Below are positions 3,454-55,083 of a DNA stretch of 64,000 nucleotides, in pieces; the stretch's first letter is position 1; each line of letters starts with the position of its first letter. This DNA is from a virus, in IMG/VR virus record IMGVR_UViG_3300037839_000499, positions 1 through 64,000 of that record; one strand, given 5' to 3'. The notes under the pieces are model-generated. The model did no database searches. It worked only from the letters and a program-made list of their open reading frames with translations, and was not told where the DNA came from. Both the position numbers and the translations under genes were made by a program.

Positions 3454-3614
3454 AGCCGATTGTAGGCGTAAGGATTGTATGCAAGACCCCAGTACCCAGA
3501 GGGCAGAGAGTGGTTCACCACCATCCGCTTTTGGGATGGCTGCGAATTATGTGGCTCCAGCACCAACACCGGATACCGGTATTCCCAACGTGGAAGTGGA
3601 AGGGCAGGAACTAA
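3450..3614 (+). CDS. Small basic Trp/His-rich protein, 54 aa
   Basis: ATG 3450 overlaps the recombinase stop (ATGA), which favours coupled translation. The product, MKPIVGVRIVCKTP...TWKWKGRN, is basic and rich in W, H, P and V. A competing frame (ATG 3479 to 3694, 71 aa) covers the same DNA and has a more ordinary composition, so the choice is not certain. The stop lies just before the late element at 3615, in the same frame as the tail fibre that follows. Confidence 0.5.
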   Translation: MKPIVGVRIVCKTPVPRGQRVVHHHPLLGWLRIMWLQHQHRIPVFPTWKWKGRN

Positions 3615-3640
3615 GCGGCACAGAGCAACCTTCATTGTTG
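3615..3640 (+). promoter_or_regulatory. Late bipartite element, copy D (tail fibre)
   Basis: GCGGCACAGAGC, 10 nt, then GTTG. It differs at one base from copies A, B and C. It ends its first half exactly 45 nt before GTG 3672, the same distance as copies A and B. There is no Shine-Dalgarno site before that start. It may be a phage-specific promoter or a 5'-leader translation element. Confidence 0.7.
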
Positions 3641-3671
3641 GCTCAGATTAGAAAGCGCACAACTTCGGGAC

Positions 3672-7103: not shown

Positions 7104-7233
7104 GCCAAAGAGTCTTTCAGAAAAACGGAGAGCCAACAAATTCGGCGAGTGGAAAACATCCACTTACGGATCTGGCAAAGGCACCGAAGTCTACTGGTCA
7201 TGGCCAAAACCAAAGCTGAAGAAAAAGAATTAA
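7093..7233 (+). CDS. Small basic protein, 46 aa
   Basis: It starts inside the end of the previous gene and overlaps the terminase start by 34 nt. Product: MKNKPKSLSEKRRANKFGEW...WSWPKPKLKKKN, basic at both ends with conserved-looking G-E-W and W-S-W-P motifs. Similar tiny basic proteins are seen beside terminase genes; function is unknown. Confidence 0.55.
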   Translation: MKNKPKSLSEKRRANKFGEWKTSTYGSGKGTEVYWSWPKPKLKKKN

Positions 7234-8963: not shown

Positions 8964-8989
8964 GCGGCACACAGCCACAGAAGTAGTTG
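8964..8989 (+). promoter_or_regulatory. Late bipartite element, copy A
   Basis: GCGGCACACAGC (8964-8975), 10 nt, GTTG (8986-8989), then 31 nt to ATG 9021. This is the same geometry as copies B and D. It directly follows the terminase stop, so it may start a new late unit containing the 100-aa, 512-aa and giant proteins. Confidence 0.75.
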
Positions 8990-13900: not shown

Positions 13901-16900
13901 CGACTGACCCTGTTGACGGCGGTCTGGATCAACAGGCGACTGGTCTTATCGCTGCCAAGGTTTTGTTTGGATCTAGCGGAGTTACCCAAGAGGAGCTGAA
14001 GGCAAAATACCGAGGGATGCCAATCATCCAAACCGACTCTAATGGTATTCAAGTGCCATCAGAGTTTGTGAAGCAGGACATATTTTCACAAGCGCCAACC
14101 ATGTCCGAACAGCTGAAAGGATTTTTAAGTCGGGTAGATCAAGCTATGGCAAAAGCGGAAGTTTCTGGCGGTGCGAGCGCAGAACCCCCAGAGCCACCGA
14201 AGCCAGAGCAGAAGCCAACCGGGAAGCCGAGACAAGTTGATCAAGCGAACCTGAAGACCCCGCGCCAGATCGCGGAGGCCAGCGCAAAGACAGGATCCCC
14301 CGCTCTGATGGCAAGGCTGGAAGGCACGACCCCGGACGAGAGATGGGCATCGGTTGAGTCGAAGATGAAAAATCTCGTAACAGCCATCGGCTCAAAGGGG
14401 CTGGATGTGAAATTTCTCTCTGATGACAGGCAAGAAGCATCTTCTGCCGGATTTGATGTGGACAACAAAACACTCCGTATCAACCTCAACCGAAAGGCTT
14501 TCATGGATATGGAGGGTACTGATCCAGAGGCAAACAACCGGTATGTAAGGGAAGAGATAGCTCACCTTGGAGACATTGCAGAGGGGGCATTGGACGCAAA
14601 AAGACAGGGCAAGGACAACTACCGCGAGCATTGGGAACAGCAACGCGCGACCATGCTTTCAAGAATCTTTAATGTCGCAAAGCAAGACAAGGCAGTAGAG
14701 GAATCGGTGGTAGCGGCTGCAAATCTTTATCTTGAAAACGTCTTTAGCAAGCCGATGACGGATGACGGCGGGAACAAGTTCTCGTCTACGAGCGCACCGA
14801 TGTCCGCCACGATGGATGCGCTTGTCCGTGGCGAAGTGATGCCTCAGTTCAAAACAATTTCAGATGTTCAGCGGTACATGGTTCGGAATGGGGTGGGCGG
14901 GGAGAAGGGTGTTCGTGCGATGCCCCTCTTTATGGCTGAGATGCTTCGGATGCTTAAGACGTATGGACAGCCCCAAACGGAATCTAGAAACTACCTCCGC
15001 ACGGCCGCGAAAACAACGGGAGGTTCGCGAGCCATTATCAAGATCATTTCCGATTACCTTCGAAAAGTATACAAAGCGCTGTTTTCCATTAAGGATAGCC
15101 TGGTCAAAGCCGACCCTCAGCTGGCTGAAGATTTGAGCAACCTCTTGTCTGAAATAGACGATGTTCTCTCTGATTCACCTAGCCAGCCAAGAGTGGAAAT
15201 AAATCCACGTAGCCCCAATGAGCCACAAGCTCCAGAGGCCAAGCCCCGCGCCCCACCCGAAACAGGTGAAAATGTCCCGCAACCGCCAGTTGAACCGCCG
15301 GTTATCGCCCCTCAAGGAGGAGGTCAAGCAGTTGGAACTATTGCACCGCCAGCGACAAGAATAGTCCCTCGAGGCCGGATGGTATCAGTTACCTATGACA
15401 AGCTTGGGTCTGGGGGAGTGGAATCAGTCACGGAACAAGTCCAGCTGACAAAGGAGCAAGAACTAGAGTGGGAAAAGGGCGAGGCGAATTACCGGCAGTC
15501 AGCGGAGATGGCTAAAAGGACAAAAGATCCGGCCATGCGCTCGAGCCGGATGCAAGGCGCTGGGTATGAGTGGGCGAAAAGAAAGAGGGAGATAACTGGC
15601 CGACTCCATTACAGGGAGCAGATGGAGAAAGAAGCCCGAGAGAAAAAAAATTACATCGGCAAGAAGGTTGGGATTCAGGCTGAGGAGGGGATTCTCTCGG
15701 CAACTATTATTGGGAATCCGTTCGGGCGGGTTAAGGTTCGGCTTGAGGACGGGCAAGAGCTTACGGTTCTGCCAGATCAGCTGACGAGCGCGCCCGAGAT
15801 CGAGCAAGACGAACCCACGACAATTCCATCTGGTCAAGTTGTCGATTTCCCAGTCAATAAGATCGTTGTTAACGACAAGATCCAGCAATTCAAAAAGAAG
15901 GCCAAGAAGGATTCGGGAGTCGTAAAAGCTCTAACTGGAGAATACCAAGCAACTCCGAAGAACCCGATTGTTATCTGGGAGCGAAACGACGGAGTGTTCG
16001 AGGTTATTACGGGCCGTCATCGGCTGGATCTGGCCAAGCGAAACAACATGGCAACAGTTCCAGCCCAAATCGTCAAAGAATCAGAGGGATGGACACAAGA
16101 AAAAGCTGAAACTTTCGATGCCGAAGCGAACATCCGCGACGGCCAAGGCGACCTCGAGGACTTTGCCTACTATTTTAGAAAGTCTGGAATCAGCCAGCAG
16201 GACGCCGAAGTAAAGGGTCTGTTGCGAGATGACGGCAAGGGGAAAGCTGGATTCTTAATCGCCAACGAGGCGACTGAAGATGTTTATGCAGGGCTAATGG
16301 CCGGCAAGGTGGACGCAGGGATGGCGGTTATTATCGCCTCTGGTGCTCCGAAATCTGTTGGAGCCGTCAATGAATCGATCCAGAGGGCGGCCTTGAACTA
16401 TGTTACTTCAGAAAGAGTAACCCAGCAGGACGTTCGCAACTTCATCTCAGGGATGATCGCAACGTTCGCCGATAAGGGGCCATCCGAGTCGCAATCAGAC
16501 CTGTTTGGTAGCGATGACTCCGCCTTGGAGCTGATGAAGCAACGAGCAAAGAAGGCCTCAAAGATCCAAAGGGATGTGCGTCAAAAGCTGAACGCAATGT
16601 TGAATTTCAAAAAGCTGAGCCGAGAGGGGCAGGCTCAAGCCTTAGAGGATGTAGGTGTAACCATAGCTGTGGGAGAAGACTCCGTGGCGAAGGTAAACCA
16701 AAAAATAACGGATCTGCAGGCCGAACTCGCCTCTTGGGAGAGATGGGCTACGGATCCAGAGAAGGTGGGCCAGATCGACCAAATGCCTAACATCAAGGCA
16801 CAAAGGATTAACATCCAGGCTCAGCGTATTGACGACACCCAAGAAGGAGGCGTAGACTCTAATAGTGAAGAACGAACTCAATCCGGAACAAGTGAAGGAA

Positions 16901-19900
16901 TACAGCCGACTGGCAGCGGAGGAGGCATATCCCCGACTGGTGAAGTGGCAACGGGACAACCCGGAGAACTTCAGAATGTGGAAGACGGACGCGGACGCCC
17001 TTTATCAGGATCCGTGGATCAACGACTTGACGGAGGATCCGGAGAGAACCAAGGATTGGCTGACAACGCTGTTCCGGCAAGCGTGCGGATCAGTAGAGGG
17101 CCACAACCAAATCTTGGCGCTCTTCAGTCGCTCCAAAGGAGAGAACCGAGAGTCGAAGTTGGGCGAACTGCTAATGTCGATGACGCTGAACGAGTTTTAG
17201 GCGAGGGTCTAGAAACCCAAGTTCCTTGGGTTCCGGTTATTCAGGGTAGCGGGGTTAGCCTAAAGACATTTGCTCCCGCTGGCATTGCGGACGAGATGCG
17301 CAGAAACTTGGAGAGAATCGACAGGGAGCGCGGTGGATTAGAGCAGTACGTAGCTAATGCGCTTGGCCTTGCAGACACTTCCGAGCTTTACCGAGTCATA
17401 AATCCAAAGGCTGGATCTAGGCTCAACAAGGAGCAAGTTGAGACAATCGCGGCCGCGCTTGACCGCATGGATGCAGGTAAGTCCTGTATTATTGGACATG
17501 AGATGGGCATAGGCAAGGGGCGCCCGTGCGCAGCTATCCTTTACGTGGCCTATTTGCGCGGCCAAATCCCGATCTTCTTTACGGCTAACTCGAGAACCTT
17601 GTATCCGACTCTAATGGATGACTTTAAGGATCTTGGATTCAAGATGGATCCATTTATTACCGACCAAGACTTTGAATCAGTAATGGGTGATGGAAGTGTT
17701 TTAACAAACAAGGGTAAAAATCCGAAGGCATTGTTCGATTCGATTGCAGCAAGCAAGAAATTGCCGACTGGCAAGACGATGATAATGACCACATGGGAGC
17801 AGGCGCGGCTCAAGGATGTGAACGCTGTTCTTAACGCCTTGGCTCCAAATGCGGTCTTCGTAATCGACGAGGCTCACAAAGGAACTGGCGATTCGCTCTC
17901 ATCGGAAGTTGCTCGAGGCATTCTGAAGAAAGCAAAAGGAGTGACGTTCTCCAGCGGAACAGCCATTAAGAATCTTGAGGCGATGCGCCTCTATTTCCCA
18001 TTCACTTCCGTCAATCGGGCCATTCCTTCCGTTCGCCGGCTAAACCAGCTTCTCAAGAAGTTTGCCAATCCTTTGCTCGAGCTGATGAATCGAGGCCTTG
18101 TCTCTGCGGGTGAGTATATTCGCTACCAGAGAGGCCTGACCCATAATGGCGAGCCGGTACCATTTACCGCATTGGCTCTACGTACTGGACCACAGGTTGT
18201 GGAGGTGAACGAGACGGCAAACGAAATCGCTGGCGAGTTAAAACAGATCCAAGCAGGGCCGTTTATGAAGCAGTTGCGCGGGGTGCTCATGCCTCTGGTG
18301 AAAACTAAGGCAGCCGCAATGATCGAGGACAAGCCCGAGCTGGCTGCAACGCTGACAATAAAAGTAGAGCCGTACCCCATGAAGTCGCAGTTCCACAATA
18401 TCGCAAACATCATGGTGCTGGCCTCGAAAATCCCCGAGATTTCAAAGCAGATTAAAGCCCTGGTCGATCAAGGCAATAAGGTGTTTGTAGCCTCTGACGC
18501 AACTGGGGAAGCCGCAGTACAAGAGTTGCTTGATGATATTTCGCTAGAAACCGACCCAAAGAATGCTTCGTTTGCGGATGCCCTTTCCCGATATACCGAC
18601 AAGCTAAAGTACATAACTATCACGGCAAAGGTCGGCCCCAAGGGTAGGCAACAGACCTTATTCCGCCAAAAGCTCGATCTGAATAGAGCGCAGGAAGAGT
18701 ACCCAGAGGCAGTAGAGAGAGCGCAACAAGTACTACAGCAGATTGCTGATGCCAAGAGCATGATTGAGTCCTCAAGGAATATTCTTGGGAGACTAGGCAT
18801 CTCGCCGATGGATTCACTCCGACAACAGCTGGAGTCAGTACAGATCCCAAGCGTCGAGATCTCCGGCCGGTCGGCCACAGTGATGCCTGATGGAACCCGC
18901 GAAAAGCGGACGGAGCTAGACCAAGACCGAATGGCCTCGCTTTCGATGTTTAACAACTTGGACGATATGAATGTAATTTCAGTTTCACGCTCTGGCTCAA
19001 CTGGGATTAACGCCCATAATTCCCCTAAATTTAACTCTCAAAAGGATCGCGTATTCTTTCTTTTGCAGCCGTCTCCGAACGTAGTGGACACAGTTCAGGT
19101 TGCCGCCCGCGTGAATCGAACCGGACAGCTGACGGCGCCTCACCTTTACATGGCCTATGCCGAGGAGTTGCCTGCAGAAAAGCGGATGATGGCTCTAACA
19201 GCCAAGAAGATGTCGAAGCTCGGAGCGTCAAGCACCGGCGGACAAAAGCTCGATATGTCGGAAACCTTTGGGGAGGACATGCACAACGCTTACGGAGATC
19301 TGGCAATGGCCAATGTTCTGGCAAGGGACGAAACATTCAGACAAGAGTTTCAGTCTAGGCATAACGAATACTTCCCAGGATCCAATGAAGAGGAGGTTCG
19401 GGCAAACCTAATGAAGGGAGCTGGCAACGGAGATGTGTTCAGAAGGTTTGAGCACATGCTTATCATTATGCCTTTGGACATTTACTCCCAAATTTCGGAG
19501 CAAATACGCGACGAATATAATGAGATCGTTGAGACGGAAAAGATGGCTGGACGATACAACCTCACGTCCGAAAAGATGGACTACAAGGCGGTGCTGGTGG
19601 ATGACATGCCGGGAATGGCCCCATACAGCCCCCGCAGGGAAGGCGAACCAGATATCGGGACCGCCCAGCCCACGCAACTTCGCAGATATCGATTTACCAA
19701 CCCAACGCCACCGCCGGCATCCGAACAGCTGATTAAGGACATCGACAAGGTGAAGGCCGATACGGCTCAACTTGTGCAGAAATACAACGAATCAGCGGAG
19801 AAATACCTGAGCGACAGGGTCAATTTGATTACAAGCCGATCCCGCCTTGATCCAAATGCAAGGAATCTGCTTATTCAGGCCATCACAAGAAAGATGGCGG

Positions 19901-22900
19901 TAGCCCAAGCGGCCGTGGCGGCTGCGGCTGAAAAGGTGGGCGGAGGCTACTGGTATCACATTAACGACACTCAAGTTCCAGTTTTTGTGACTGGCTTACG
20001 GCTGAACATTAAGTATCCGCATGTTGTCGCTTCTCAGCGTATGCTTATCCAAAGCGCGGGGTTCAACCATCTCATGCCGGTTCCAATTTCCGCCAACCCT
20101 CTTTCTCGGTTGGCATCGGCCCAAGCCGCTTTCAATAATAACCCGCTCGAGCAGAACGAGCTTGGCATCGAGATGCCCCTTCTGGACATCACTCCGACTG
20201 GCCAAGACTCCGAGGCGGCTTTCTATCGCTCATTCCAGCAGACGGAAACGTATGCAGCTGCAAAAGCTTGGGAGAACCATCCTTTCGCACTCCGAGAAAA
20301 ATACATGAGCTTCGCTATGGATAGAGCCGGGTATAGGCCTGGATTCTTCAGAGTTAACCGCAAATTCTCAGACGGAAAGACGGTGAATAGTCTTTATTAC
20401 GACGGGAACACGATTATCGAGATGTCTCCTGTGCGTACCCGCGAGATTCTTTCCTTTGTGTCTGAAAAGACTGAGAACGCCCAGACCGAAAAAGAGGTAG
20501 TTGACGCATTTGCTGAGGCGTTGGATGTAACGCAGGACATCGACACAATAACCGATGAGGGCGCGGTAGCTACGGATCAAGGGCAAAAGCAATTTGTAGG
20601 CAAGATGAACAACCGCCGGCGCAACCAAGTTGTATCTGGTGCGTATGACCGCGAGCGCCAGAAGGCGATGCAACAAGACCACTTCGTTATTGCTGGCAAT
20701 CCCTTGGTGGCTGCAGATATGGCGACTAGGTTGTTTGGCCAGCAGTTAAATCACCGCATCATGCGATTCACTAATCAGGACGGAAGTGAGACAACTGGCA
20801 TTGTTGTTCCCGCCCAAGCCGAGTTCAGTCAGCTCAGGAAGCTTTCAGACGTAATGAATACCAAAGAGACAATTCAGCGTTCTGATGCCGAGAGGGTGCT
20901 GGACTTCCTGAATAGCACCATCACAAGACACCATAACGCAACGGAGGTCGTGTTTACGGACGGAGCCACAATTTCATACGCAACCACAGAGGCAACGGCC
21001 ATTGAGACACCCCATTCACTCAAATCGATAATCCCAAATCGAGTGTGGGAAATGGCGCAAGATCAGCTGGCCGACTTATCTGTTGTGGAGGAGGGAGGAG
21101 TCCCTGATGAGGTCAGAGCGGAGCTTGAGAAGTTAGTTCCTGGAGCAAAGGTATCGGCAGAGGGGCCATACATTGTTGTTGCAATGGGTGGTTTTGATGC
21201 CGGAAAATACATCGCTAAGAGGATGGCGAGGGCTTCCGACAGGATCGCTACTGGCGCAACGCCTATTGAAGGTTACGCCTATTCCGGCCCCCGCTCAGTT
21301 CAAATTCACGCCCAGCGGATTGGGGATGAAATCACCCCAGAGATATGGAACTACTACCGGATCGCCACCCAACAGACTACTGACTCAGATGGGGGCGTGG
21401 GGCCGTCGCCAGCAGTTCGAATGGTTCTACGAATGTTCCCGAATATGGATGCCTCGTATGTGGAGGATTCAGCTGTTTCTGGTGTTCTGAAAGCCATTAA
21501 AGCTCTTGCCGTAATGCGGACGCAGGATCCGGGCAAGTTTGCCGAAATGGAGGGATCCATGACTCCTGAAGGCGGAATACCCAAGAAGATTTTCTCCTAC
21601 ATGGTCGAAGCCGCCAAAAACAGCGTGCTTACGTCCTACCAAAAGTTTGGGCAGTACGAGGTTGACCCACCCGAGCAACAAGGGATGCAGATGCTTGAGG
21701 ATGAGGAAACCGTGGCCGAGGTTCTGGCGGGTAGGGCAACCGCATTTAGCGATGATGAGGGGCCGGACATCGTTACTCCCAAGGAGATAGAAGAGACTGA
21801 GTTTACCAAGGCCCTGCGTAGCGACATGGAAGCCGCATTCCAGATTATTGATCCACGCTTGGCCCAAGTGTTTGTCGCTCACAACCGAGGAATGACATTC
21901 GAGGCAATTGCAGATGAATTTGCGTTGCCACCGATTATCGGGAAGGACGGGAAGCAACGCCCAAACAAGCAGATGGCCCAGCGTATGTACGATGATGCGC
22001 TCCGAGCCTTACAAGACTTTGCTGGTGACAATAGCTTGTTCGCAACCAACTCGAGGCCACAAAAGCCTGTGAGTAGGGCATTGCGGCTCGCCATGGAAGC
22101 AGGGCTAATTCGACCCATGTCGATCAACGCACAGCGGATCTACACAACCGATTCTGAGGAAGACGGTGAAACAGCGAACCTTGTTCGGCAGTTCCGTAGC
22201 ACCCAGCTTGGGCAGGCCATTGCGGCGCTTCGTTCTGGACCGCAACCAGCCGGCAACCTCATCCGTGGGATTGCGGAGCCAGCAAACGAAAACAATAAGG
22301 CGATCCAAGCCTACTACCGGCTTCTTAGCCAAGCCTTGGTCAAGGGTATTGAGGCCAACCCATCGTCATTCCTTGGCAGGGCATCAAATACCGACGTAGT
22401 AATCGATGAATCGATCCCAACGTCTCACTTCTCGTCGAGCAAAATGGATCCGTTTACGATGGGAATTATCCGGCTTCACCCTGGTCAATTGAGTCCGAGG
22501 GTAATTCTGCATGAATTTGTTCATGCCTTTACCGCTCAACTCATTGGAACCGAAATCATTAAGAATTTCCAACCTCGCCGTGGAGAGATGACTGGATCGA
22601 AGTATCGCGAGGCATTAACCACTTACGCCAACAAGCAACCCATCGATACAGACAACCCAACAGGGGCGATCCCCGCGATGCAGAGCCTTGTGAAGGCATA
22701 TCTTGGGGCATTGAAGTACGCCAAAGACGATGCCGGTCAACCGATTGAGAACGCAATCTTTGGTTCTGGCCTAACTGCCAGCTTCTCAATCACGTTGCCT
22801 ATGCACCGAGCGAGCTATGCCGGCGGATTGCATATGTCGGCGCACATTGATGCGTCCAATTCAAAGGCTATCTATGACCACTTTACCGAACTTGGGCTTG

Positions 22901-25900
22901 AGGGTAAGGCTGGAGTGCCGAATGACACTCTTGATGCCTATGTAAATAAGAATGGTTCGACCAATGACTTCTTTATCTCCAGTCCGGCCGGATCGCTTGC
23001 TGGCCTAGAGGTTGAGGCTGACGGAAAGCTCATACTTACCCCTTCTGGGCTAGAAAAGCTAAGGACTCAGAATGTAGCCCCTTCGGCATATTCAACTTAC
23101 ACCATACGCTCCTCGAAGCCTGTGTTTAAGCAGAGGATTCTGGGCGTGGTTGGCGATCCCACGAAAAGGGCGATGTCGATTCTCTATGGATTCAAGAACA
23201 TTGACGAGTTTTCCGCTGAAACGATGAGCAACCCTTCATTTGTGGGTATGATTGCTGGTCTGGATGTGCCGAAAGGGCTAACCAAGACCCCGCATGACTA
23301 TCTGATTGAATGGTTTGATCAGCTGGAGTCAGATCTGCTGAACCTAAAGGGTGGAATGAAGGGAGCCGTGAGGAACATGGCTGCCGGAACCCTAGTAGGG
23401 TCGACGGCTGGATCCTTGATGGACATCGGATCGATCAAGATTACCGATTATCAGACTATTCTTGGGAATCGAGAGTCAGCCACAAGGTCAGAATCTCCCA
23501 CACAACAAGGACAGCTTTTTGCCCAAAGGATCGGCGGAGATAGGCTTGAGGAGAAGATTACAAACACAATTCAGGCGATGCCAAGGGGCGGCCTAATTAC
23601 TACTACTAAAGGGGCATTCTCGATACGGCCGAGGGTTGGGTCGGATGGTTGGGTAACGAGGGGAATCGACAATCCAAGAAGGGTTATCACTAAGACCATC
23701 TCGGCCGCCGTTGCTGGGTTGCCCGGGATCCGCGGTATGGTGCAAGTGGTTAAGTCCTACACCCGCGATGACGTAGCCCCTTCGGATCTAGGCGGTGAAA
23801 AGAACCCATTAGCCTTGGAATACAAGAAGTTAACCGATATTCCGACCCCCACCGATGAACAGCGCAAGCGGATCTCAGAAATCGAGAGGTTTGCCACCAA
23901 GTACAAGATGCCAGGAGTCGGCGTTCAGCAAGCCTTGTTCGACACGGGCAAATACGCTGGGTCGCCCAATCGGCCAACGGGATCTACTCCATCCGTTATC
24001 GAGACTCCGCCAGCTAGGTTTATCGCACCCCAAATGGAGCTTGCCCTTAATGCCCAACGGATTGAGCCAAGCGGATCCCAAAAAATCCTTTCTGAAATTA
24101 ACCAGCTTCGCGCGATGCGTGACTCTGGCCAGTCCTACAACGAGAAGCGGTTGCGCCAACTAGAGTTTACTGCCAGCCAAACCAAGCTGGCCGGGTATCA
24201 GCCGGAAGGCCAGCTGATGGCCACAGAGACAAGCCTCAATCCAACAGTTCAGCCCTTTGCGTTAGAGCAAGAAACAAGGCCGGCAATGGTGCAACAGAAT
24301 TTGTTTGCTCAAAGGATTGATTACGACGACAACGGAAACCCTGTGGTTACGCCAAAGCCACTTACCCCAGAAGAGTTAATGTCTATCCGAGCCGACCTCT
24401 TGGGTGACTTGGGTAAAGATGCCCCAGAAGTGATGGCGATGTATCGCAAGTTACGTATCCAGCCATCTGGGGTTAAGACGCTGGGTGGAGTCTACCAAAC
24501 AGGCGAAAACGGCGGGCCGGCGAGAAGCTTGGCAAACCCTGGACAAACAGCCGAACAGCGGGACTTGATTAACGCGATGGATGCGATGCGTTTCCAGCGT
24601 GGGCTTGGGATTAAGCAGGATTCGGCAGTTGAGGACGCCGCCACTCAAATTCTTTCTACGCCGGAAGGTCGGCTTGGAGTCCAAGAGGCCGTTCTATCAG
24701 GTCAGTCTCTAAACACGGAAACAACATTAGCGGCCATGAAAATGGTCGGAGAGATGGTGCAAGAGGCAATTACCAGCGAAAACGCTGAGGACTTAGGTAA
24801 GGCATACGCTATGACGTACATGTATCGAGAAGCCAGATCCGAGACCGCTCGCTCCCTTCGGATTGGCTACGACAGGCTAATGACGCCAGCTCAGCGACAC
24901 TCTGAGTTTCTTATGGCCGTAATGGTTCAGCCTGAGCGAAACAGGATTCTTGAACTAAAGTATTACCCAACCGAATCCCAAAACCGAAGCGATATAAGAA
25001 GCTTGCAGGCAACACTTGAGGATTTGCTTAAGGAAAGAAACGACTTACTAGGCTCCCAAGGCAACTCGGAAGAGATGGCGGCCGTGCTGGAACAGAGGAA
25101 CGCCGAGATTCAAGCAATGCAGGCGCAAATCGCGGATTTACAGAATCGCGTGACTCGAGAGCAAGTTATGGCCCAAGAAGCACAAGAGAGGTTGGCGGAT
25201 GTAAATCGCACGCTCGCTGGCCTTGGAACAAGTCTCCAGCAGTTAATGAAGGAGTCCGAGCTTTCAGAAATTAGAACAGGACGGCCGGCTACCCAAATGC
25301 TGGATCAAGTGAGGCTTTCTCCAAAGGAACGTGAGGCGGTGGAGCTGATTATGATCGGGCATGACCCGGTTTCAGTTTCCAAGCAAACCAAAGTTAAGCT
25401 GGTGGATATTAAGGGTGCGATGGATGTCATGCGGTCTGAGGCCAAAAGAAGGTTTAGCCAGATCGCTCAAAGCGGGATGACCCGAGACCAGCTCCGCAAG
25501 GCGCTCCTCGAAAACGCAAGAACGGACGCTTCGATGAGGCAGATATTGGCCCAGCGGATTCCAGACAATCAGCCGTTGGGCGAGGAAGAGGCGATGGAGG
25601 AGATCTACAACATGCTGGGCCTTACGCTTACCCCAACTGGTGACTATAAGTGGGCTGAGCGCAAGGGCAAAAGCAACCTCTTCGACCTACGGAAACCAGA
25701 ACATATCGTGGTGCTTGCAAAATCCATTCAAGCCGGGAAGCCAACAATCGACGGAACTATATTTGAGGCTTACGTCGCAAGCATTTTCAGCGGATTCGCA
25801 ACGCAAATTGCAAATATGGCGATGACCCCACTTTCCCCAATCACAACATCTGTTCATCGCGGATTTCAAGCGCTTACTACATATCTTTTGGGCAAGGCCG

Positions 25901-27867
25901 GAATCAATCAAGAAGTCGAAGTTGACAAGATCGACAATCGGCAAGTCCCACTCTTTAAGCCAGGGACAGCATACAATAGTCTATCAGATGCGGCAGAGGG
26001 GGCAGGCCGTGAGATTGGATATATATTGAGAGCAGTTGTTCCGGCATTCTTCGAGGCGGTAACAATGGGTAAGTTGGCTTGGGCAACCGAAGCAGGATTC
26101 TTTGACTACAATGTTTCTGGAGTTCTTGAGGACATCGATGATCCACAGACAAGGTTTGGTGCGTTCCTGCAGAAGTACGGAAGAACGAGAAAGACAAGAA
26201 TACCCGGAAAGCTCGGGAAGGCGGTTCGCGCTCCGCTTCGCGGTCTGCTTGCTGCCGATGAATTCACGAAGACGTTCAGGGCATACATGAATGTTGGCGC
26301 GCATGCCTATCGGTTAGGCAAAGCCTCTGGTCTTAATGGTGCGGAGTTAAATTCATTTGTAGAAAAGGAGATTAATGGGGCTGGCTCAACAAGCTGGATG
26401 CTTGCGGCCCGCCGAGCAACCAAGGAGACATTCACATTCCAATTAAGGCCAGAAAACGGCCAAGTCCGCTCTGTCGGCGACTTTGCGGCCGAAAACGTAG
26501 GGCGACTCTCAGATTTTTACGCAAGCCTTGAAAACGCCGCAACTGCCATGGACGGGAATCCGCTATTTATGCCAGCTAGGGCGACCCTTCGCCTCATCCA
26601 GTCGTTTTTGGTTTTAATCAAAAGCCCATTCAATATTTACCGCGAAGGTTATGCCTACACGGCTCCTGCCATACTTAACTTAATTTCAAGAGCTAGGAGG
26701 TTTAAGGAGACCGAGGTTGCTGGCAAGAAAATCAAGTATCTGCCCGTGACCGAGTACGACGACTTTGTTGAAAGGCTAACAAGCTTTGGAATCGGAACTG
26801 CAATACTTGCTGGTTTCTTAATCGGGGGCGCAGAAGGAGATGACGATGACGACAAGAAGCTCTTGCTTGTTACCGGGACGCCAGATCCGCTGGCTCCAGG
26901 AGGACAGCGGGTAACTAGGTTTGGCAACTCTCCATTCAAAATTATTCTTAGGGGCGATTGGCTTAAGAGCCTCGGCGTTACTACTGGCGAATACGTCCTC
27001 GACTACAGCCGAGTCGAACCCATTGGAACCTTAATTTCGGCTAATATTAATATCGCCAGAACGATGAAGGAGACCTTCAGAAACCCAAGCCAAGCTGGAT
27101 CTGCTGGCGCAAATCTATTTAAGGACTATTTCTTGGCTCCCGGAACAAGAACCTACGGCAAAGCATGGCGCGATATGGTGAGCCTGTTTGATTTGGAGGG
27201 AAGCGGATGGCAAAGGGTCTTAAGGGACAAGTTATCCGCCATAATGTCGCCCAATTTATTCAAGCAACCGTTTGGTGGGATCCCCGAATATGAGAAGGAT
27301 GTTTATAATCCAGATCCATTAGCCGCAGATGCTCTTGCATTTGCGATCCTGCCAGGACTCGGAGACCAGCTAGGGATTCCTGATCGGCGCACATTCGAGG
27401 GCATGAAAGTTCCCAACCCAGTTCTGTACGATGGGGCCGGCCCAGCTGCAAGGTCAGTCGCTCGGCTATTGCCCGGACGATTCGGCGAAGGATTCGGGAA
27501 GACAGATTTCGAGAAATTCATAGACAACTACAATCGTCAACACCCTGACAAAAGGTGGAATCCAGACCTTTCTCGACCAGATCGATTCTTTGACGACAAA
27601 TATCTTCGCCAAAGGGTTGCCTTGACCAACTCCGAGTACGAGATGGTGCTCAAAATGGCCGCACCCAAAATAAAGGCCTATCTGTATGGGAATAGCGCGG
27701 AGAGCGGTACTTTATCTCAAAAGGACTTATCTGGCTTTATTCCAGAAGACCGCAAGGACGTAGTCCAAAGAACGATTTCTGGATTCTATCGGGATGCTAA
27801 GAAAGCAGTTGTGGATGCGCGGCACAGAAGAGAGCTGAAGGCTTTACAGTCTAGCCCCGCTAAGTAG
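10921..27867 (+). CDS. Giant multidomain polyvalent protein, 5,648 aa (probable polyprotein)
   Basis: One uninterrupted 16.9-kb frame between terminase and portal. Segments in order: 1-590, charged and coiled, Pro-rich near 540; ~600-890, hydrophobic helical block; ~1170-1430, degenerate metallopeptidase-like region with E1211-E-I-A-H1215; 1641-1790, ParB-like domain (GRHR at 1698-1701); ~2140-2780, SF2 helicase of SNF2/strawberry-notch type (G-I-G-K-G 2196-2200, DEAH 2316-2319, VAARVNRTGQ 2727-2736); ~3500-3700, sigma-factor-like segment; HEFVH 3864-3868 with DEFSAE 4095-4100, a zinc metallopeptidase; ~4690-4780, coiled coil followed by a helix-turn-helix; 4880-5648, a membrane-active C-terminal block. 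AQRI occurs eight times between these parts. Domain mixtures like this are known as phage polyvalent proteins, injected with the genome. Virion location and processing are inferred. Confidence 0.9.
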   Translation: MSLPDFGGTGVDGKPEDSFGGPEPEYVPRTRSEARSLEQEQTGKIKEATRAYNYGSEQALEEAGIKYKTDEQGFVQPRYEPNNEFGRSVEFGTSEFKDPITEETRQIDKTGKVKPKKRQNVTYKSGDANNPNFPNPSRIYRVYTREQDAGVEDPNQPFAATKAEDIGSAFDLQGVSDQGISSLAKEAVRKNRQYELSSAKSVLDARGQQLDVESETFKSQIDTLNQTPIPDWQPDGDKMDPAIAAEVGGKADAKTRQNVAARIGMSRDQKIGEVSSQLAEKNKERIRNRALQVELQSQMSFDEGESIYDNRVQQLLKNGAKQEDIDKDPLIGAIREGLTNIQKPVLPLSEVFKDPTLAPQAIYETRASQREKARIEAEGRLAKEKATEFLKPFIEQAADTSISYTTLAGRRNRLSSVYNKLLEDADSSDTNQKGSGLNLRAQAAGYAEAIGVLDDQLGRIGKQALIAQDGAKIQGEFAKEKEQRVQQELKTRLTKLEQETALKVEKFKQRKELEDGAFMGPPAPEDIPPSTPTQGSPTQPTTPSQPESPTSWFQGGLNNLFSKDTMRQATRGYFELNQKFASGTYLAAANSLRIRGQEMPTMGSEFVGAMTTSPSMPAKIMAVLGMVDRQFGGKLHNKAANYFEESATAAKENETAIRNEKFLGAEPVSPEWRESDVGQVVKSLTELPFYIGTTMINPAVGFIATFGTSYDEAIQNQLNSGVRNPDHVTALAEAIPVAAAESLGNMVQLGLAKSLGRKFIQNLESMTARSLRGLFASAAMKIGGGSAFEGMEEGVQTWWSNMIAKHIGKFDPNRPLDKDVWKSIYVAMWAGGAGVTVMGGGTVVLTGAQNALNERGLRKQVDEMRTATEDIPLNGWEDWGNKLPEQVLDPGLAESFGEIGADLDEQQGQFLVGLADSIKGAPFRRLLELGKSIDESINQPPALQSRAAGILTGAKNEQLKGEADLYAERANLAAIMQGEAQLRLRVAREIGTLPTDPVDGGLDQQATGLIAAKVLFGSSGVTQEELKAKYRGMPIIQTDSNGIQVPSEFVKQDIFSQAPTMSEQLKGFLSRVDQAMAKAEVSGGASAEPPEPPKPEQKPTGKPRQVDQANLKTPRQIAEASAKTGSPALMARLEGTTPDERWASVESKMKNLVTAIGSKGLDVKFLSDDRQEASSAGFDVDNKTLRINLNRKAFMDMEGTDPEANNRYVREEIAHLGDIAEGALDAKRQGKDNYREHWEQQRATMLSRIFNVAKQDKAVEESVVAAANLYLENVFSKPMTDDGGNKFSSTSAPMSATMDALVRGEVMPQFKTISDVQRYMVRNGVGGEKGVRAMPLFMAEMLRMLKTYGQPQTESRNYLRTAAKTTGGSRAIIKIISDYLRKVYKALFSIKDSLVKADPQLAEDLSNLLSEIDDVLSDSPSQPRVEINPRSPNEPQAPEAKPRAPPETGENVPQPPVEPPVIAPQGGGQAVGTIAPPATRIVPRGRMVSVTYDKLGSGGVESVTEQVQLTKEQELEWEKGEANYRQSAEMAKRTKDPAMRSSRMQGAGYEWAKRKREITGRLHYREQMEKEAREKKNYIGKKVGIQAEEGILSATIIGNPFGRVKVRLEDGQELTVLPDQLTSAPEIEQDEPTTIPSGQVVDFPVNKIVVNDKIQQFKKKAKKDSGVVKALTGEYQATPKNPIVIWERNDGVFEVITGRHRLDLAKRNNMATVPAQIVKESEGWTQEKAETFDAEANIRDGQGDLEDFAYYFRKSGISQQDAEVKGLLRDDGKGKAGFLIANEATEDVYAGLMAGKVDAGMAVIIASGAPKSVGAVNESIQRAALNYVTSERVTQQDVRNFISGMIATFADKGPSESQSDLFGSDDSALELMKQRAKKASKIQRDVRQKLNAMLNFKKLSREGQAQALEDVGVTIAVGEDSVAKVNQKITDLQAELASWERWATDPEKVGQIDQMPNIKAQRINIQAQRIDDTQEGGVDSNSEERTQSGTSEGIQPTGSGGGISPTGEVATGQPGELQNVEDGRGRPLSGSVDQRLDGGSGENQGLADNAVPASVRISRGPQPNLGALQSLQRREPRVEVGRTANVDDAERVLGEGLETQVPWVPVIQGSGVSLKTFAPAGIADEMRRNLERIDRERGGLEQYVANALGLADTSELYRVINPKAGSRLNKEQVETIAAALDRMDAGKSCIIGHEMGIGKGRPCAAILYVAYLRGQIPIFFTANSRTLYPTLMDDFKDLGFKMDPFITDQDFESVMGDGSVLTNKGKNPKALFDSIAASKKLPTGKTMIMTTWEQARLKDVNAVLNALAPNAVFVIDEAHKGTGDSLSSEVARGILKKAKGVTFSSGTAIKNLEAMRLYFPFTSVNRAIPSVRRLNQLLKKFANPLLELMNRGLVSAGEYIRYQRGLTHNGEPVPFTALALRTGPQVVEVNETANEIAGELKQIQAGPFMKQLRGVLMPLVKTKAAAMIEDKPELAATLTIKVEPYPMKSQFHNIANIMVLASKIPEISKQIKALVDQGNKVFVASDATGEAAVQELLDDISLETDPKNASFADALSRYTDKLKYITITAKVGPKGRQQTLFRQKLDLNRAQEEYPEAVERAQQVLQQIADAKSMIESSRNILGRLGISPMDSLRQQLESVQIPSVEISGRSATVMPDGTREKRTELDQDRMASLSMFNNLDDMNVISVSRSGSTGINAHNSPKFNSQKDRVFFLLQPSPNVVDTVQVAARVNRTGQLTAPHLYMAYAEELPAEKRMMALTAKKMSKLGASSTGGQKLDMSETFGEDMHNAYGDLAMANVLARDETFRQEFQSRHNEYFPGSNEEEVRANLMKGAGNGDVFRRFEHMLIIMPLDIYSQISEQIRDEYNEIVETEKMAGRYNLTSEKMDYKAVLVDDMPGMAPYSPRREGEPDIGTAQPTQLRRYRFTNPTPPPASEQLIKDIDKVKADTAQLVQKYNESAEKYLSDRVNLITSRSRLDPNARNLLIQAITRKMAVAQAAVAAAAEKVGGGYWYHINDTQVPVFVTGLRLNIKYPHVVASQRMLIQSAGFNHLMPVPISANPLSRLASAQAAFNNNPLEQNELGIEMPLLDITPTGQDSEAAFYRSFQQTETYAAAKAWENHPFALREKYMSFAMDRAGYRPGFFRVNRKFSDGKTVNSLYYDGNTIIEMSPVRTREILSFVSEKTENAQTEKEVVDAFAEALDVTQDIDTITDEGAVATDQGQKQFVGKMNNRRRNQVVSGAYDRERQKAMQQDHFVIAGNPLVAADMATRLFGQQLNHRIMRFTNQDGSETTGIVVPAQAEFSQLRKLSDVMNTKETIQRSDAERVLDFLNSTITRHHNATEVVFTDGATISYATTEATAIETPHSLKSIIPNRVWEMAQDQLADLSVVEEGGVPDEVRAELEKLVPGAKVSAEGPYIVVAMGGFDAGKYIAKRMARASDRIATGATPIEGYAYSGPRSVQIHAQRIGDEITPEIWNYYRIATQQTTDSDGGVGPSPAVRMVLRMFPNMDASYVEDSAVSGVLKAIKALAVMRTQDPGKFAEMEGSMTPEGGIPKKIFSYMVEAAKNSVLTSYQKFGQYEVDPPEQQGMQMLEDEETVAEVLAGRATAFSDDEGPDIVTPKEIEETEFTKALRSDMEAAFQIIDPRLAQVFVAHNRGMTFEAIADEFALPPIIGKDGKQRPNKQMAQRMYDDALRALQDFAGDNSLFATNSRPQKPVSRALRLAMEAGLIRPMSINAQRIYTTDSEEDGETANLVRQFRSTQLGQAIAALRSGPQPAGNLIRGIAEPANENNKAIQAYYRLLSQALVKGIEANPSSFLGRASNTDVVIDESIPTSHFSSSKMDPFTMGIIRLHPGQLSPRVILHEFVHAFTAQLIGTEIIKNFQPRRGEMTGSKYREALTTYANKQPIDTDNPTGAIPAMQSLVKAYLGALKYAKDDAGQPIENAIFGSGLTASFSITLPMHRASYAGGLHMSAHIDASNSKAIYDHFTELGLEGKAGVPNDTLDAYVNKNGSTNDFFISSPAGSLAGLEVEADGKLILTPSGLEKLRTQNVAPSAYSTYTIRSSKPVFKQRILGVVGDPTKRAMSILYGFKNIDEFSAETMSNPSFVGMIAGLDVPKGLTKTPHDYLIEWFDQLESDLLNLKGGMKGAVRNMAAGTLVGSTAGSLMDIGSIKITDYQTILGNRESATRSESPTQQGQLFAQRIGGDRLEEKITNTIQAMPRGGLITTTKGAFSIRPRVGSDGWVTRGIDNPRRVITKTISAAVAGLPGIRGMVQVVKSYTRDDVAPSDLGGEKNPLALEYKKLTDIPTPTDEQRKRISEIERFATKYKMPGVGVQQALFDTGKYAGSPNRPTGSTPSVIETPPARFIAPQMELALNAQRIEPSGSQKILSEINQLRAMRDSGQSYNEKRLRQLEFTASQTKLAGYQPEGQLMATETSLNPTVQPFALEQETRPAMVQQNLFAQRIDYDDNGNPVVTPKPLTPEELMSIRADLLGDLGKDAPEVMAMYRKLRIQPSGVKTLGGVYQTGENGGPARSLANPGQTAEQRDLINAMDAMRFQRGLGIKQDSAVEDAATQILSTPEGRLGVQEAVLSGQSLNTETTLAAMKMVGEMVQEAITSENAEDLGKAYAMTYMYREARSETARSLRIGYDRLMTPAQRHSEFLMAVMVQPERNRILELKYYPTESQNRSDIRSLQATLEDLLKERNDLLGSQGNSEEMAAVLEQRNAEIQAMQAQIADLQNRVTREQVMAQEAQERLADVNRTLAGLGTSLQQLMKESELSEIRTGRPATQMLDQVRLSPKEREAVELIMIGHDPVSVSKQTKVKLVDIKGAMDVMRSEAKRRFSQIAQSGMTRDQLRKALLENARTDASMRQILAQRIPDNQPLGEEEAMEEIYNMLGLTLTPTGDYKWAERKGKSNLFDLRKPEHIVVLAKSIQAGKPTIDGTIFEAYVASIFSGFATQIANMAMTPLSPITTSVHRGFQALTTYLLGKAGINQEVEVDKIDNRQVPLFKPGTAYNSLSDAAEGAGREIGYILRAVVPAFFEAVTMGKLAWATEAGFFDYNVSGVLEDIDDPQTRFGAFLQKYGRTRKTRIPGKLGKAVRAPLRGLLAADEFTKTFRAYMNVGAHAYRLGKASGLNGAELNSFVEKEINGAGSTSWMLAARRATKETFTFQLRPENGQVRSVGDFAAENVGRLSDFYASLENAATAMDGNPLFMPARATLRLIQSFLVLIKSPFNIYREGYAYTAPAILNLISRARRFKETEVAGKKIKYLPVTEYDDFVERLTSFGIGTAILAGFLIGGAEGDDDDDKKLLLVTGTPDPLAPGGQRVTRFGNSPFKIILRGDWLKSLGVTTGEYVLDYSRVEPIGTLISANINIARTMKETFRNPSQAGSAGANLFKDYFLAPGTRTYGKAWRDMVSLFDLEGSGWQRVLRDKLSAIMSPNLFKQPFGGIPEYEKDVYNPDPLAADALAFAILPGLGDQLGIPDRRTFEGMKVPNPVLYDGAGPAARSVARLLPGRFGEGFGKTDFEKFIDNYNRQHPDKRWNPDLSRPDRFFDDKYLRQRVALTNSEYEMVLKMAAPKIKAYLYGNSAESGTLSQKDLSGFIPEDRKDVVQRTISGFYRDAKKAVVDARHRRELKALQSSPAK
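27819..27844 (+). promoter_or_regulatory. Late bipartite element, copy E (weaker)
   Basis: GCGGCACAGAAG inside the last codons of the giant gene, ending 46 nt before ATG 27877 of the portal gene. The first nine bases match copy D; the second half is GCTT rather than GTTG. No Shine-Dalgarno site precedes the portal start. Spacing is the main support. Confidence 0.5.
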
Positions 27868-27876
27868 TCGAGTTAT

Positions 27877-30066
27877 ATGGCTGAAACGCAGATAGATACG
27901 CTTTTGGAGAGCACGGACGCCCTTGAAAAGGCCATAGACCAAGCCAAACCGCTGGAAGGCGGGGAGGCACTAGGAGGCGGATCCCCAGCTCCCAATAGCT
28001 TTTCAACAGCCTATCTGCTTACGGCGGAACAGGAGAAAAACCTAGTCGCCCACGCCATAAGAAGGCTCCGGGAAACCGAAGCCGACATGGGTCGCAACCT
28101 CACCCGATCTGCCGCTTGGCATAACAATATGTCGGGCGGGATTCCGGCTCATGATACTTTCCTTGGTAGAAGGCAGATATTTGAATGGATTTACGAGAAT
28201 AACGTAAGCTGGCGTCCGTTCACGATGGGCGGAATCTTTGAGCATAGTAATCTCATCGTTCCGTTAACTCGCAGGATTGCTCGGCAAATGATCGCTCGAG
28301 CCGTTAAGTATTTCCTTGGTACAGACCCTTGGTTCGGGGTTTTGCCAGAAGGATCCTCAGATCGGAATGTGGCCGACCGGCTTGAAAAGTACGCCCGATT
28401 TAAGTTTGACCGACTGAAGATTAAGGATGCCCTAAAGATGGCCATCCAGATTGCATTTGTCCGAGGGGAGTGCGTCGTCAAAACCACCTACACCCAGAAA
28501 GATCAAATATATAAAAAGCTCCTGCGGGTAATGGTAGACGGCCAAGGGAATCCCATTATGGCGGCCGACGGTGATTTTATTACAGAAAACGACCGGTTTG
28601 CCCCATCTCAAGACGGCCAAATGGTTCTCCAGAGAGACATGCAGACCCCGCAACCCATGTTCCCAATCTTTATGGAGCAATTGGTTACACGGAAGTCCGA
28701 CATATTTATCGGGCCTGCGGCCGAGCCAGTATACTTTCAAGACTTTTTGTGTCCGCTAAATGCGTCTTCTGTCGATGATGCCGATTTCTGCGCTCATCTT
28801 TACGATGCACCGGTGATGGAGCTGGCCGACCTTTACAGGAAAAAGGGAGTCGGATCGGAGGATCCAGACGAAGAGCTGGCAAGAATCCGTAGCGTGATTG
28901 AGCAGATTCGGCTGGCCTCAAGCGAAAGCGGAGATCCCAAAACAGGGGCTGGGCAAGCTAGGTCTGAACGAGGTGAGGGTCAGGTGGGGGTCAACAATAC
29001 AGCCCAGCCGTCCCTTGAAGTGGCTGAATGCTACATTCGCTACGATGCGGATGGCGACGGGATTACCGAAGAAATTATGCTACTTCTCGATGTTAAGAAC
29101 CAAAAAGCCATCTTTTATGAGTACACAGCCAATGTAACTGCTGACGGTAAGAGGCCGTTCACAGTTCTTAGGGTTAATCCAGTAGACGGCCGGTGGTATG
29201 GGATCGGAGCGGTGGAGCAGTTTAAGTCCTCGCAGGACTTTATTGATCTGACGGTAAACCGATTAAACTTTGCCCAAGGAGCAAGCGGGCGGATCACGTT
29301 CTGGAGGCCAGACGCCACTTACGAGGGATCCTCTAATCCAAACCTAGTTCTCAACAGCGGAGGCACTTACACGCTTCGCCCAGGATTTTCAGCCAAGGAT
29401 GCCGTTGAATATGTGGCACTCCCAGAGACCAAAAACGACCAGCTGAGCTTCATGTTGAACTATTTTACGCAGATTGTTCAGCTGGAGTCAGGGATTGTGA
29501 ATCCCGGCGACCAAGACTTTGCGGGTCTTCCAAGTTCCAAGCTGGCAACCGGAATCCGCTCGATTGACGCTTCGGGCCAAGAAATGTTTAGCCAATACAT
29601 TCAAGACATGCTCGCCCCGCTGATGCAGATTATGAATCGTCTCGTTCTGCTACTACTCAAAAACTTAGACAAGAAGGAGGCTTTCAACTATCTCGAAGGA
29701 GATGCGTTGAGTCTTATCTCTATCGGGCCAGATGACGTAAAGGGCATGGAATTGAATATAAAATTACTTCTAACCCGCTTCTACGGAGAGCAACAGCTTC
29801 AGAGTAATGCCCAAGCGGCCAATCTTGTGACGCAATTTTACTCCCTCCCGCCCGAAATTCAGCAGAAAGTATCCTTGTTCTACACTCAATCATTGAAGTC
29901 CCTTGGCGTTGTAGAGGCCGAGCAGATTATTCAGCCATTTGAAGTAACAGGGGCAACTACCCAAGATGGAAGAGTTTTCGGGCAATCCGGATCCCCAGGA
30001 GCGCCAGCCGGTGCAGTTGGGAATCCAAGACAAGTACCACTAGATCCCGGATCCGCTGGCGGATGA
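27877..30066 (+). CDS. Portal protein
   Basis: 729 aa, the size of podovirus portals. The N-terminal third carries a portal-like core (IVPLTRRIARQMIARAVKYFLGTDPWFGVLPEG...KIKDALKMAIQIAFVRGECVVKTTY). The middle has the YDADGDGITEE acidic loop and an LRVNPVDGRWYGIGAVEQF segment common in large portal proteins. The C-terminal ~40 residues are a Gly/Pro-rich tail. It would form the dodecameric DNA entry ring at one capsid vertex. The stop overlaps the next start (ATGA). Confidence 0.85.
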   Translation: MAETQIDTLLESTDALEKAIDQAKPLEGGEALGGGSPAPNSFSTAYLLTAEQEKNLVAHAIRRLRETEADMGRNLTRSAAWHNNMSGGIPAHDTFLGRRQIFEWIYENNVSWRPFTMGGIFEHSNLIVPLTRRIARQMIARAVKYFLGTDPWFGVLPEGSSDRNVADRLEKYARFKFDRLKIKDALKMAIQIAFVRGECVVKTTYTQKDQIYKKLLRVMVDGQGNPIMAADGDFITENDRFAPSQDGQMVLQRDMQTPQPMFPIFMEQLVTRKSDIFIGPAAEPVYFQDFLCPLNASSVDDADFCAHLYDAPVMELADLYRKKGVGSEDPDEELARIRSVIEQIRLASSESGDPKTGAGQARSERGEGQVGVNNTAQPSLEVAECYIRYDADGDGITEEIMLLLDVKNQKAIFYEYTANVTADGKRPFTVLRVNPVDGRWYGIGAVEQFKSSQDFIDLTVNRLNFAQGASGRITFWRPDATYEGSSNPNLVLNSGGTYTLRPGFSAKDAVEYVALPETKNDQLSFMLNYFTQIVQLESGIVNPGDQDFAGLPSSKLATGIRSIDASGQEMFSQYIQDMLAPLMQIMNRLVLLLLKNLDKKEAFNYLEGDALSLISIGPDDVKGMELNIKLLLTRFYGEQQLQSNAQAANLVTQFYSLPPEIQQKVSLFYTQSLKSLGVVEAEQIIQPFEVTGATTQDGRVFGQSGSPGAPAGAVGNPRQVPLDPGSAGG

Positions 30067-34379: not shown

Positions 34380-34405
34380 GCGGCACACAGCCAATCAACA
34401 TGTTG
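34380..34405 (+). promoter_or_regulatory. Late bipartite element, copy B (scaffold/capsid)
   Basis: GCGGCACACAGC (34380-34391), 10 nt, GTTG (34402-34405), 31 nt, ATG 34437. Identical halves and spacings to copy A, 25 kb away. It lies in the divergent region and is the only plausible initiation signal for the scaffold-capsid unit. Confidence 0.75.
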
Positions 34406-55057: not shown

Positions 55058-55083
55058 GCGGCACACAGCAAACACGGAAGTTG
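55058..55083 (+). promoter_or_regulatory. Late bipartite element, copy C (HNH gene)
   Basis: GCGGCACACAGC (55058-55069), 10 nt, GTTG (55080-55083), then 32 nt to GTG 55116. First half identical to copies A and B. It lies in the divergent region between the 54658-55038 minus gene and the HNH gene, and also inside no known coding frame. Confidence 0.7.

What the first reader, a model, noticed from the sequence alone, without database searches (positions are those of the whole stretch)
21310..22140. Sigma-factor-like segment bracketed by two AQRI sites
Between AQRI 3464 and AQRI 3737 lies a 270-residue unit. Residues ~3505-3580 have a region-2-like helix pattern. Residues ~3631-3700 (LRSDMEAAFQIIDPRLAQVFVAH, GMTFEAIADEFALP, then QRMYDDALRAL) resemble sigma-70 region 4, with a short insert in the turn. 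If released by cutting, it could direct host RNA polymerase to the late elements, a role analogous to, but different from, the virion RNA polymerase of N4.
Basis: inference. Interest (0 to 1): 0.72.

Follow-up and report, generated by a model that had tools for sequence, protein, structure and literature searches.

The report
Sigma factor inside giant phage polyprotein
A 5,648-residue phage protein of the kind thought to be injected into bacteria contains a domain shaped like a bacterial sigma factor, flanked by short repeated motifs that look like cutting sites, so the virus may deliver a transcription-steering factor together with its DNA.

Summary
Window 21310-22140 encodes residues 3464-3740 of a 5,648-aa ORF lying between terminase and portal, with AQRI at both ends. 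The sigma reading is supported at fold level. A 9-row AlphaFold alignment without cellular sigmas gave well-modelled cores whose best PDB matches are all sigma factors: sigma2 2.1 A over 75 residues, sigma4 2.2 A over 64. NCBIfam sigma70-ECF is the only family hit for the unit (E 7e-4). In a distant clade (about 20% identical here) the same position gives E 6.5e-7. dN/dS is 0.02-0.06 in both clades. The distant clade has no AQRI, but its own repeated SRG[LI] motif sits at the same seven inter-domain positions, including both sides of the sigma unit, which fits diverged processing sites. The giant resembles 'polyvalent proteins' (ParB-like, Strawberry-notch helicase, HExxH, next to portal); sigma is not mentioned in the main text of the paper defining them. 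Most likely it is an ECF-like sigma domain, delivered in or with the virion, released by proteolysis, recruiting host RNA polymerase. Core binding, cleavage, virion location and promoter use are untested. Acting on the late element is unproven.

The parts
10921..27867 (+). Giant polyvalent-type protein, 5648 aa, between terminase and portal genes
   Evidence: neighbours by PHROGs; full-length relatives of 5444-5525 aa
21310..22140 (+). Sigma-factor-like unit with both bracketing AQRI motifs (residues 3464-3740)
21409..21648 (+). Sigma region-2-like helical domain (residues 3497-3576); VIA alignment to the SigE N-terminal domain, 2.1 A over 75 of 77 residues
21799..22038 (+). Sigma region-4-like helix-turn-helix domain (residues 3627-3706); SigR region 4, 2.2 A over 64 of 65 residues
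   Evidence: Pfam Sigma70_r4_2 in the clade-B orthologue, E 3.6e-4
21931..21966 (+). Insert (beta-hairpin in the model) between the two helices of the region-4 HTH; conserved D-G in both clades
21310..21321 (+). AQRI motif before the sigma unit; aligned column for column with SRGL in clade B
22129..22140 (+). AQRI motif after the sigma unit; SRGL lies 35 columns on in clade B
16798..16830 (+). Tandem pair of AQRI motifs
23521..23532 (+). AQRI motif (LFAQRI), same column as LFSRGI/LFARGI in clade B
24052..24063 (+). AQRI motif
24307..24318 (+). AQRI motif (LFAQRI), same column as FSRGL in clade B
25549..25560 (+). AQRI motif, 3 columns from SRGI in clade B
22510..22524 (+). HEFVH, zincin-like metallopeptidase motif in the unit just after the sigma unit (HEYKH in clade B); candidate processing protease
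15817..16356 (+). ParB-like domain of the giant
   Evidence: PHROG 3264/1033, E 1e-4 to 5e-4
17422..19563 (+). SF2 helicase, Strawberry-notch C-terminal domain E 1e-17
7149..8963 (+). Terminase large subunit
   Evidence: PHROG
27877..30066 (+). Portal protein
   Evidence: PHROG 1216, E 6e-23
8964..8989 (+). Element GCGGCACACAGC-N10-GTTG before the operon that includes the giant
34380..34405 (+). Same element upstream of the scaffold/major capsid operon
55058..55083 (+). Same element, third exact copy
3615..3640 (+). Variant copy (GCGGCACAGAGC-N10-GTTG) upstream of a tail gene

Best explanation
Residues 3464-3740 of the giant are an ECF-like sigma-70-family domain (sigma2, acidic linker, sigma4 with an insert in its HTH) carried as one module of a polyvalent ejected phage polyprotein. 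Shown: the fold-level match, its place in the protein, conservation in two clades and purifying selection. Inferred: the polyprotein is packed next to the portal and enters the cell with the DNA; it is cut at the AQRI (or, in clade B, SRG[LI]) linkers, probably by its own HExxH metallopeptidase or a head protease; the freed 270-residue unit then binds host core RNA polymerase and steers it to phage promoters at the start of infection. This would serve the purpose of the N4 virion RNA polymerase by delivering only the specificity subunit.
For: Family: TIGR02937 sigma70-ECF is the only NCBIfam hit for the unit (window E 7.3e-4; clade A L002 1.9e-4) and the top hit in clade B (6.5e-7 to 9.1e-7), matching from about profile position 49 to 145 of 165, i.e. 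region 2 through region 4. A scan of the whole clade-B giant reports five families at E<=1, all sigma factors. In six-frame searches of five clade-B records the only match is at this unit, E 1.5e-8 to 5e-8. Structure: the alignment held only phage rows; cores pLDDT 70-83; Foldseek PDB ranks 1-37 all sigma or sigma-polymerase complexes; all 50 VIA rows sigma, sigma2 2.1 A over 75/77 and sigma4 2.2 A over 64/65; best named viral matches are phage sigma factors. A profile built here from cellular sigmas gives its best score at the same unit in the clade-B giants and aligns the window unit from region 2.3 to region 4. dN/dS 0.02-0.06. Processing: clade B has SRG[LI] at the positions where clade A has AQRI, column offsets 56, 0, 35, 0, 42, 0, 3 against a random mean of 611; 0 of 20000 random placements as close. 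Polyvalent context; Bacteroides phages BS-TP4 and BKO1-TP3 carry giants beside the portal, one annotated DarB-like; polyvalent proteins are proposed to be injected, processed by zincin peptidases and to jump-start transcription (PMC5512222).
Against: All profile scores are below curated cut-offs, and the window unit itself scores only 7e-4; it is lost in a scan of a 2,500-aa fragment and in the filtered whole-genome search. The model has mean pLDDT 60 and a disordered linker. The Q-E pair of region 2.2 used by E. coli sigma70 on the polymerase clamp is not kept (DSAVSG in place of DLIQEG), and the insert splits the HTH, so core or promoter binding could be altered or lost. Nothing shows the giant is in the virion, is cut, or that the unit binds RNA polymerase. 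Bacteroides relatives lack a sigma match in their giants, so the module is not essential to this protein type.
Confidence: 0.55

Rival explanations
1. The domain binds host RNA polymerase or its sigma-binding sites but acts as a decoy: it shuts off host transcription or displaces host sigma rather than directing initiation at phage promoters.
For: Region 2.2 clamp-contact residues are not the canonical ones and the HTH carries an insert, so the polymerase fit may be kept without normal promoter reading. Host RNA polymerase is a target of other injected phage proteins such as T4 Alt (PMC5512222).
Against: The whole sigma2-sigma4 pair is kept in two distant clades under strong purifying selection; a decoy would need only one of them.
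Confidence: 0.2
2. The domain is a sigma-derived DNA-binding or DNA-entry module: it tethers polymerase or the polyprotein to incoming phage DNA, so that transcription or the helicase pulls the genome in, without being freed.
For: It sits in the same protein as a Strawberry-notch-type helicase and a ParB-like domain.
Against: The conserved linker motifs on both sides in both clades suggest separation rather than action in one chain.
Confidence: 0.13
3. It is a helical domain that resembles a sigma factor by chance or only through its LuxR/sigma4-type HTH, with a structural role in the head or in ejection.
For: Sigma4-like scores alone also seem to come from ordinary HTH regulators (many matches confined to profile positions 115-162). 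hhalign to a primary-sigma profile ranks the unit first in both giants but with only 2-4% probability, and a Bacteroides giant gave a higher score elsewhere.
Against: Matches span region 2 and region 4 in order, and both domains superpose on sigma2 and sigma4 at about 2 A with no non-sigma fold among the 50 best rows.
Confidence: 0.07
4. AQRI/SRG[LI] are not cleavage sites but short linear motifs for docking the giant to another phage protein, such as portal or scaffold, so the sigma domain stays in the chain.
For: Cleavage was not tested. Identifying the motifs as cutting sites rests only on their repetition and inter-domain position.
Against: Seven spread positions, all between modules and matched across clades, fit polyprotein processing better than docking.
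Confidence: 0.3

Closest known systems
Sigma-70 family, ECF-type two-domain sigma factors (TIGR02937; SigE, SigR, SigH)
   Same: sigma2-linker-sigma4 order and fold; NCBIfam superfamily match; best structural matches
   Different: A module inside a 5,648-aa phage protein, not a gene of its own; scores below the curated cut-off; hairpin insert in the region-4 HTH; non-canonical region 2.2
Polyvalent proteins of phages and conjugative elements (Iyer et al. 2017, PMC5512222), DarB/DdrB type
   Same: Giant multidomain phage protein with ParB-like domain, SWI2/SNF2-class (Strawberry-notch) helicase and HExxH motif; Bacteroides phage giants in the same place before the portal, one annotated DarB-like
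   Different: Carries a sigma-factor domain, a word absent from the main text of that paper; no methylase found; repeated AQRI or SRG[LI] linkers
N4 virion RNA polymerase and the P23-45 tape-measure-fused RNA polymerase (PMC10770324)
   Same: A transcription component proposed to travel in a giant phage protein and act at the start of infection
   Different: A specificity factor for host polymerase instead of a polymerase; no polymerase domain found in the giant
Stand-alone phage sigma factors (e.g. T4 gp55; group 2 jumbo-phage sigmas, PMC7824862)
   Same: Phage-encoded sigma fold; phage sigmas are the best named viral structural matches
   Different: Those are separate genes expressed in the cell, not modules of a presumed virion polyprotein

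Membership tests
Sigma-70 family (ECF-like) | Profile match to a sigma family at or above the curated cut-off | tested here: inconclusive
   TIGR02937 best and only hit, E 7.3e-4 (window) and 6.5e-7 (clade B), but 18-30 bits against a cut-off of 42.9
Sigma-70 family (ECF-like) | sigma2 fold followed by sigma4 fold | tested here: met
   AF2 cores pLDDT 70-83; sigma2 2.1 A over 75/77, sigma4 2.2 A over 64/65; all 50 VIA rows are sigma
Sigma-70 family (ECF-like) | Uninterrupted HTH turn and canonical (sigma70-type) region 2.2 clamp residues | tested here: not met
   Insert between the HTH helices; DSAVSG in place of DLIQEG. These are typical rather than strictly defining features of the superfamily.
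Sigma-70 family (ECF-like) | Binds core RNA polymerase and directs initiation | not testable with these tools
   Needs biochemistry
Phage polyvalent proteins | Several disparate domains in one large phage protein | tested here: met
   ParB-like, Strawberry-notch helicase, sigma-like, HExxH motif
Phage polyvalent proteins | Zincin-like metallopeptidase domain | tested here: inconclusive
   HEFVH/HEYKH at equivalent positions in both clades; no Pfam peptidase hit
Phage polyvalent proteins | Packaged in the virion and injected | not testable with these tools
   Only gene position beside the portal and resemblance to DarB-like giants
N4-type virion RNA polymerase | RNA polymerase catalytic domain in the giant | tested here: inconclusive
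   No polymerase family in profile scans of the giant; most of the giant was not folded, so a very diverged one is not excluded

The most novel reading that the evidence does not exclude
A virion-delivered sigma factor: a phage polyprotein that carries, frees by proteolysis and injects its own sigma subunit, so that host RNA polymerase is redirected before any phage gene is expressed.
Probability: 0.4. Interest if true: 0.87.

Novelty: new variant of a known kind. Interest (0 to 1): 0.72.

Why it matters
Phages must start transcription at once. Known virion solutions are a whole polymerase (N4, crAss-like phages, P23-45) or enzymes that modify host polymerase. A sigma domain in an ejected polyprotein would be a third, more economical route, and gives a concrete, testable reading of the proposal that polyvalent proteins 'jump-start transcription'. 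The paired clades with different linker motifs (AQRI, SRG[LI]) and different late-operon elements also offer a natural comparison for testing processing-site and promoter co-evolution.

Tried and rejected
Sequence searches of the unit against Pfam, PHROGs and PDB found nothing usable for the window sequence alone. tblastn of the unit against 50,697 phage records: none. AlphaFold of the clade-B unit on eight near-identical rows failed, pLDDT 36, and was not used. hhalign against a RpoD/RpoS-rich profile put the unit first in both giants but at 2-4% probability, with a higher unrelated hit in a Bacteroides giant: weak evidence only. I first thought the brackets were not conserved because clade B has no AQRI; the k-mer count and alignment reversed that. 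A scan of cellular genomes for the giant's helicase found no relative. I looked for one late element shared by both clades and found two different ones. GGCAC-N15-GTTG resembles ECF promoter spacing (my own knowledge), but a relaxed version of this pattern also occurs at other places in clade B, so I put no weight on it.

Full report
WHERE IT IS. The window is 64,000 bases of a 64.9-kb IMG/VR virus record. ORF 10921-27867 encodes 5,648 residues, between a terminase (7149-8963) and a portal gene (27877-30066), with a major capsid gene at 35440. The finding's interval is residues 3464-3740 and begins and ends with AQRI. AQRI occurs eight times in this protein (0.11 expected) and is its most enriched 4-mer. 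A scan of all frames of the window for the looser pattern AQR[IVLM] or [ILVF]xA[QE]R[IVL] found, outside the giant's frame, only scattered matches in other reading frames or strands, and one AQRM inside the unit. Four relatives 92-94% identical keep both AQRI.

A SECOND CLADE. Portal-based searches brought in phages with portals about 65% identical whose giants are 5,444-5,525 residues long and 25-35% identical to this one in the matched blocks. The sigma interval was one of the gaps in that comparison. In clade B the gap holds a linker 'ISKDAPISGTFNEEGD...' followed by 'LYDKLEKVMASLADSDRKIFMMYVSGASYQQIS', which reads like a sigma linker plus region 4.

FAMILY EVIDENCE. NCBIfam: TIGR02937 (sigma70-ECF) is the only hit for the window unit (E 7.3e-4) and for L002 (1.9e-4), and the best for L015 and L030 (9.1e-7, 6.5e-7), over profile positions 49-50 to 141-146, that is, from the end of region 2 into region 4. 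Scanning the 3,321 residues held of the L015 giant without choosing a region returns only five families, all sigma factors. Six-frame searches of five clade-B records give one match each, at this unit, E 1.5e-8 to 5.3e-8. Pfam Sigma70_r4_2 scores 3.6e-4 in clade B. A profile of both clades against PDB sequences returns cyanobacterial SigA as its first three hits, at weak E-values of 0.07-0.46. An HMM made here from cellular sigmas gives its best score at this unit in the clade-B giants and aligns 'FSYMVEAAKNSVLTSYQK' of the window with the region 2.3-2.4 helix. All scores are below curated cut-offs, and filtered searches of clade-A records miss the unit. Region-4-only similarity cannot tell a sigma from a LuxR-type HTH, so the region-2 part and the structure carry the argument.

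STRUCTURE. The window unit was predicted from nine phage rows: five clade-A sequences, plus the region-4 part of four clade-B sequences; no cellular sigma was included (alignment). Mean pLDDT is 60, with the region-2 and region-4 cores at about 70-83 and the linker disordered. Foldseek against PDB: ranks 1-37 are sigma factors or polymerase-sigma complexes, best E 0.066. VIA-align: all 50 rows are sigma. The SigE N-terminal domain fits at 2.1 A over 75 of 77 residues (Z 7.8) and SigR region 4 at 2.2 A over 64 of 65 (Z 7.3). Whole-length rmsd is near 24 A, presumably because the two domains are placed differently. Each Z alone would be middling, but the absence of any non-sigma fold and the full coverage of both domains are what count. 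Against viral models the best named hits are phage sigma factors. The region-4 HTH carries a hairpin insert (residues 3671-3682), and an insert with a conserved D-G is present in clade B. The region 2.2 residues differ from the canonical ones.

SELECTION. dN/dS of the unit is 0.02-0.06 in both clades, so it is maintained.

THE BRACKETS. Clade B has no AQRI. Its top enriched 4-mer in L015 is SRGL. Aligning the whole giants puts the seven SRG[LI] sites of L053 at or near the AQRI positions of the window (offsets 56, 0, 35, 0, 42, 0 and 3 columns; random mean 611; none of 20,000 random placements as close), including one exactly before and one just after the sigma unit. The motif was chosen after looking at the counts, but its positions were not. 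Short motifs that differ between clades yet stay at the same module borders are what diverged processing sites would look like. The unit following the sigma unit holds HEFVH (HEYKH in clade B), a zincin-type motif. Zincin peptidases have been proposed to process polyvalent proteins (PMC5512222). Cleavage itself is inferred.

WHAT KIND OF PROTEIN. A ParB-like domain, a helicase with a Strawberry-notch C-terminal domain (E 1e-17) and the HExxH motif match the description of polyvalent proteins, proposed to be injected with the DNA and to include means to jump-start transcription (PMC5512222). The main text of that paper does not contain the word sigma; its supplementary domain lists were not seen. 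Bacteroides phages BS-TP4 and BKO1-TP3 have giants of comparable length immediately before the portal, the latter annotated DarB-like. The BS-TP4 giant matches this one over the helicase. No sigma match lies in the Bacteroides giants. Literature searches found no virion-delivered sigma factor, within an open-licence library only.

LATE ELEMENTS. GCGGCACACAGC occurs exactly three times and once as a variant, each followed after 10 bases by GTTG, ahead of the operon with the giant, the capsid operon and others; clade-A relatives keep it. Clade B has ATGCGTCGCA[TC]C at the two equivalent operon heads. These may be late promoters or operators. Nothing here ties them to the sigma unit, and a factor carried in the virion would be expected to act first on early genes.

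CONCLUSION. I hold at about 0.93 that this is a sigma-70-family-like fold, at about 0.7 that the linkers are processing sites, and at about 0.55 that the unit acts on host polymerase as a delivered sigma factor.

Noticed in passing
window 25315-25455 (residues about 4799-4845): A second HTH-like stretch in the same giant (LSPKEREAVELIMIGHDPVSVSKQTKVKLVDIKGAMDVMRSEAKRRF), aligned and conserved in clade B, just before the last AQRI; could be another DNA-binding module.
   Followed up: partly
window 8964, 34380, 55058, 3615; clade B e.g. L015:17626 and L020:9502-9513 (- strand): Clade-specific late-operon elements at equivalent operon heads: GCGGCACACAGC-N10-GTTG in clade A, ATGCGTCGCA[TC]C in clade B.
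   Followed up: partly
window 16798-16830: Two AQRI motifs in tandem seven residues apart between the ParB-like and helicase parts; clade B has one SRGL about 60 columns away.
   Followed up: no
window 2827-3453: Serine recombinase/DNA invertase gene next to tail genes; possible tail-gene switching.
   Followed up: no
window 1248-1874: Galactose-3-O-sulfotransferase-like gene (PHROG 3347, E 9e-11) in a phage genome.
   Followed up: no
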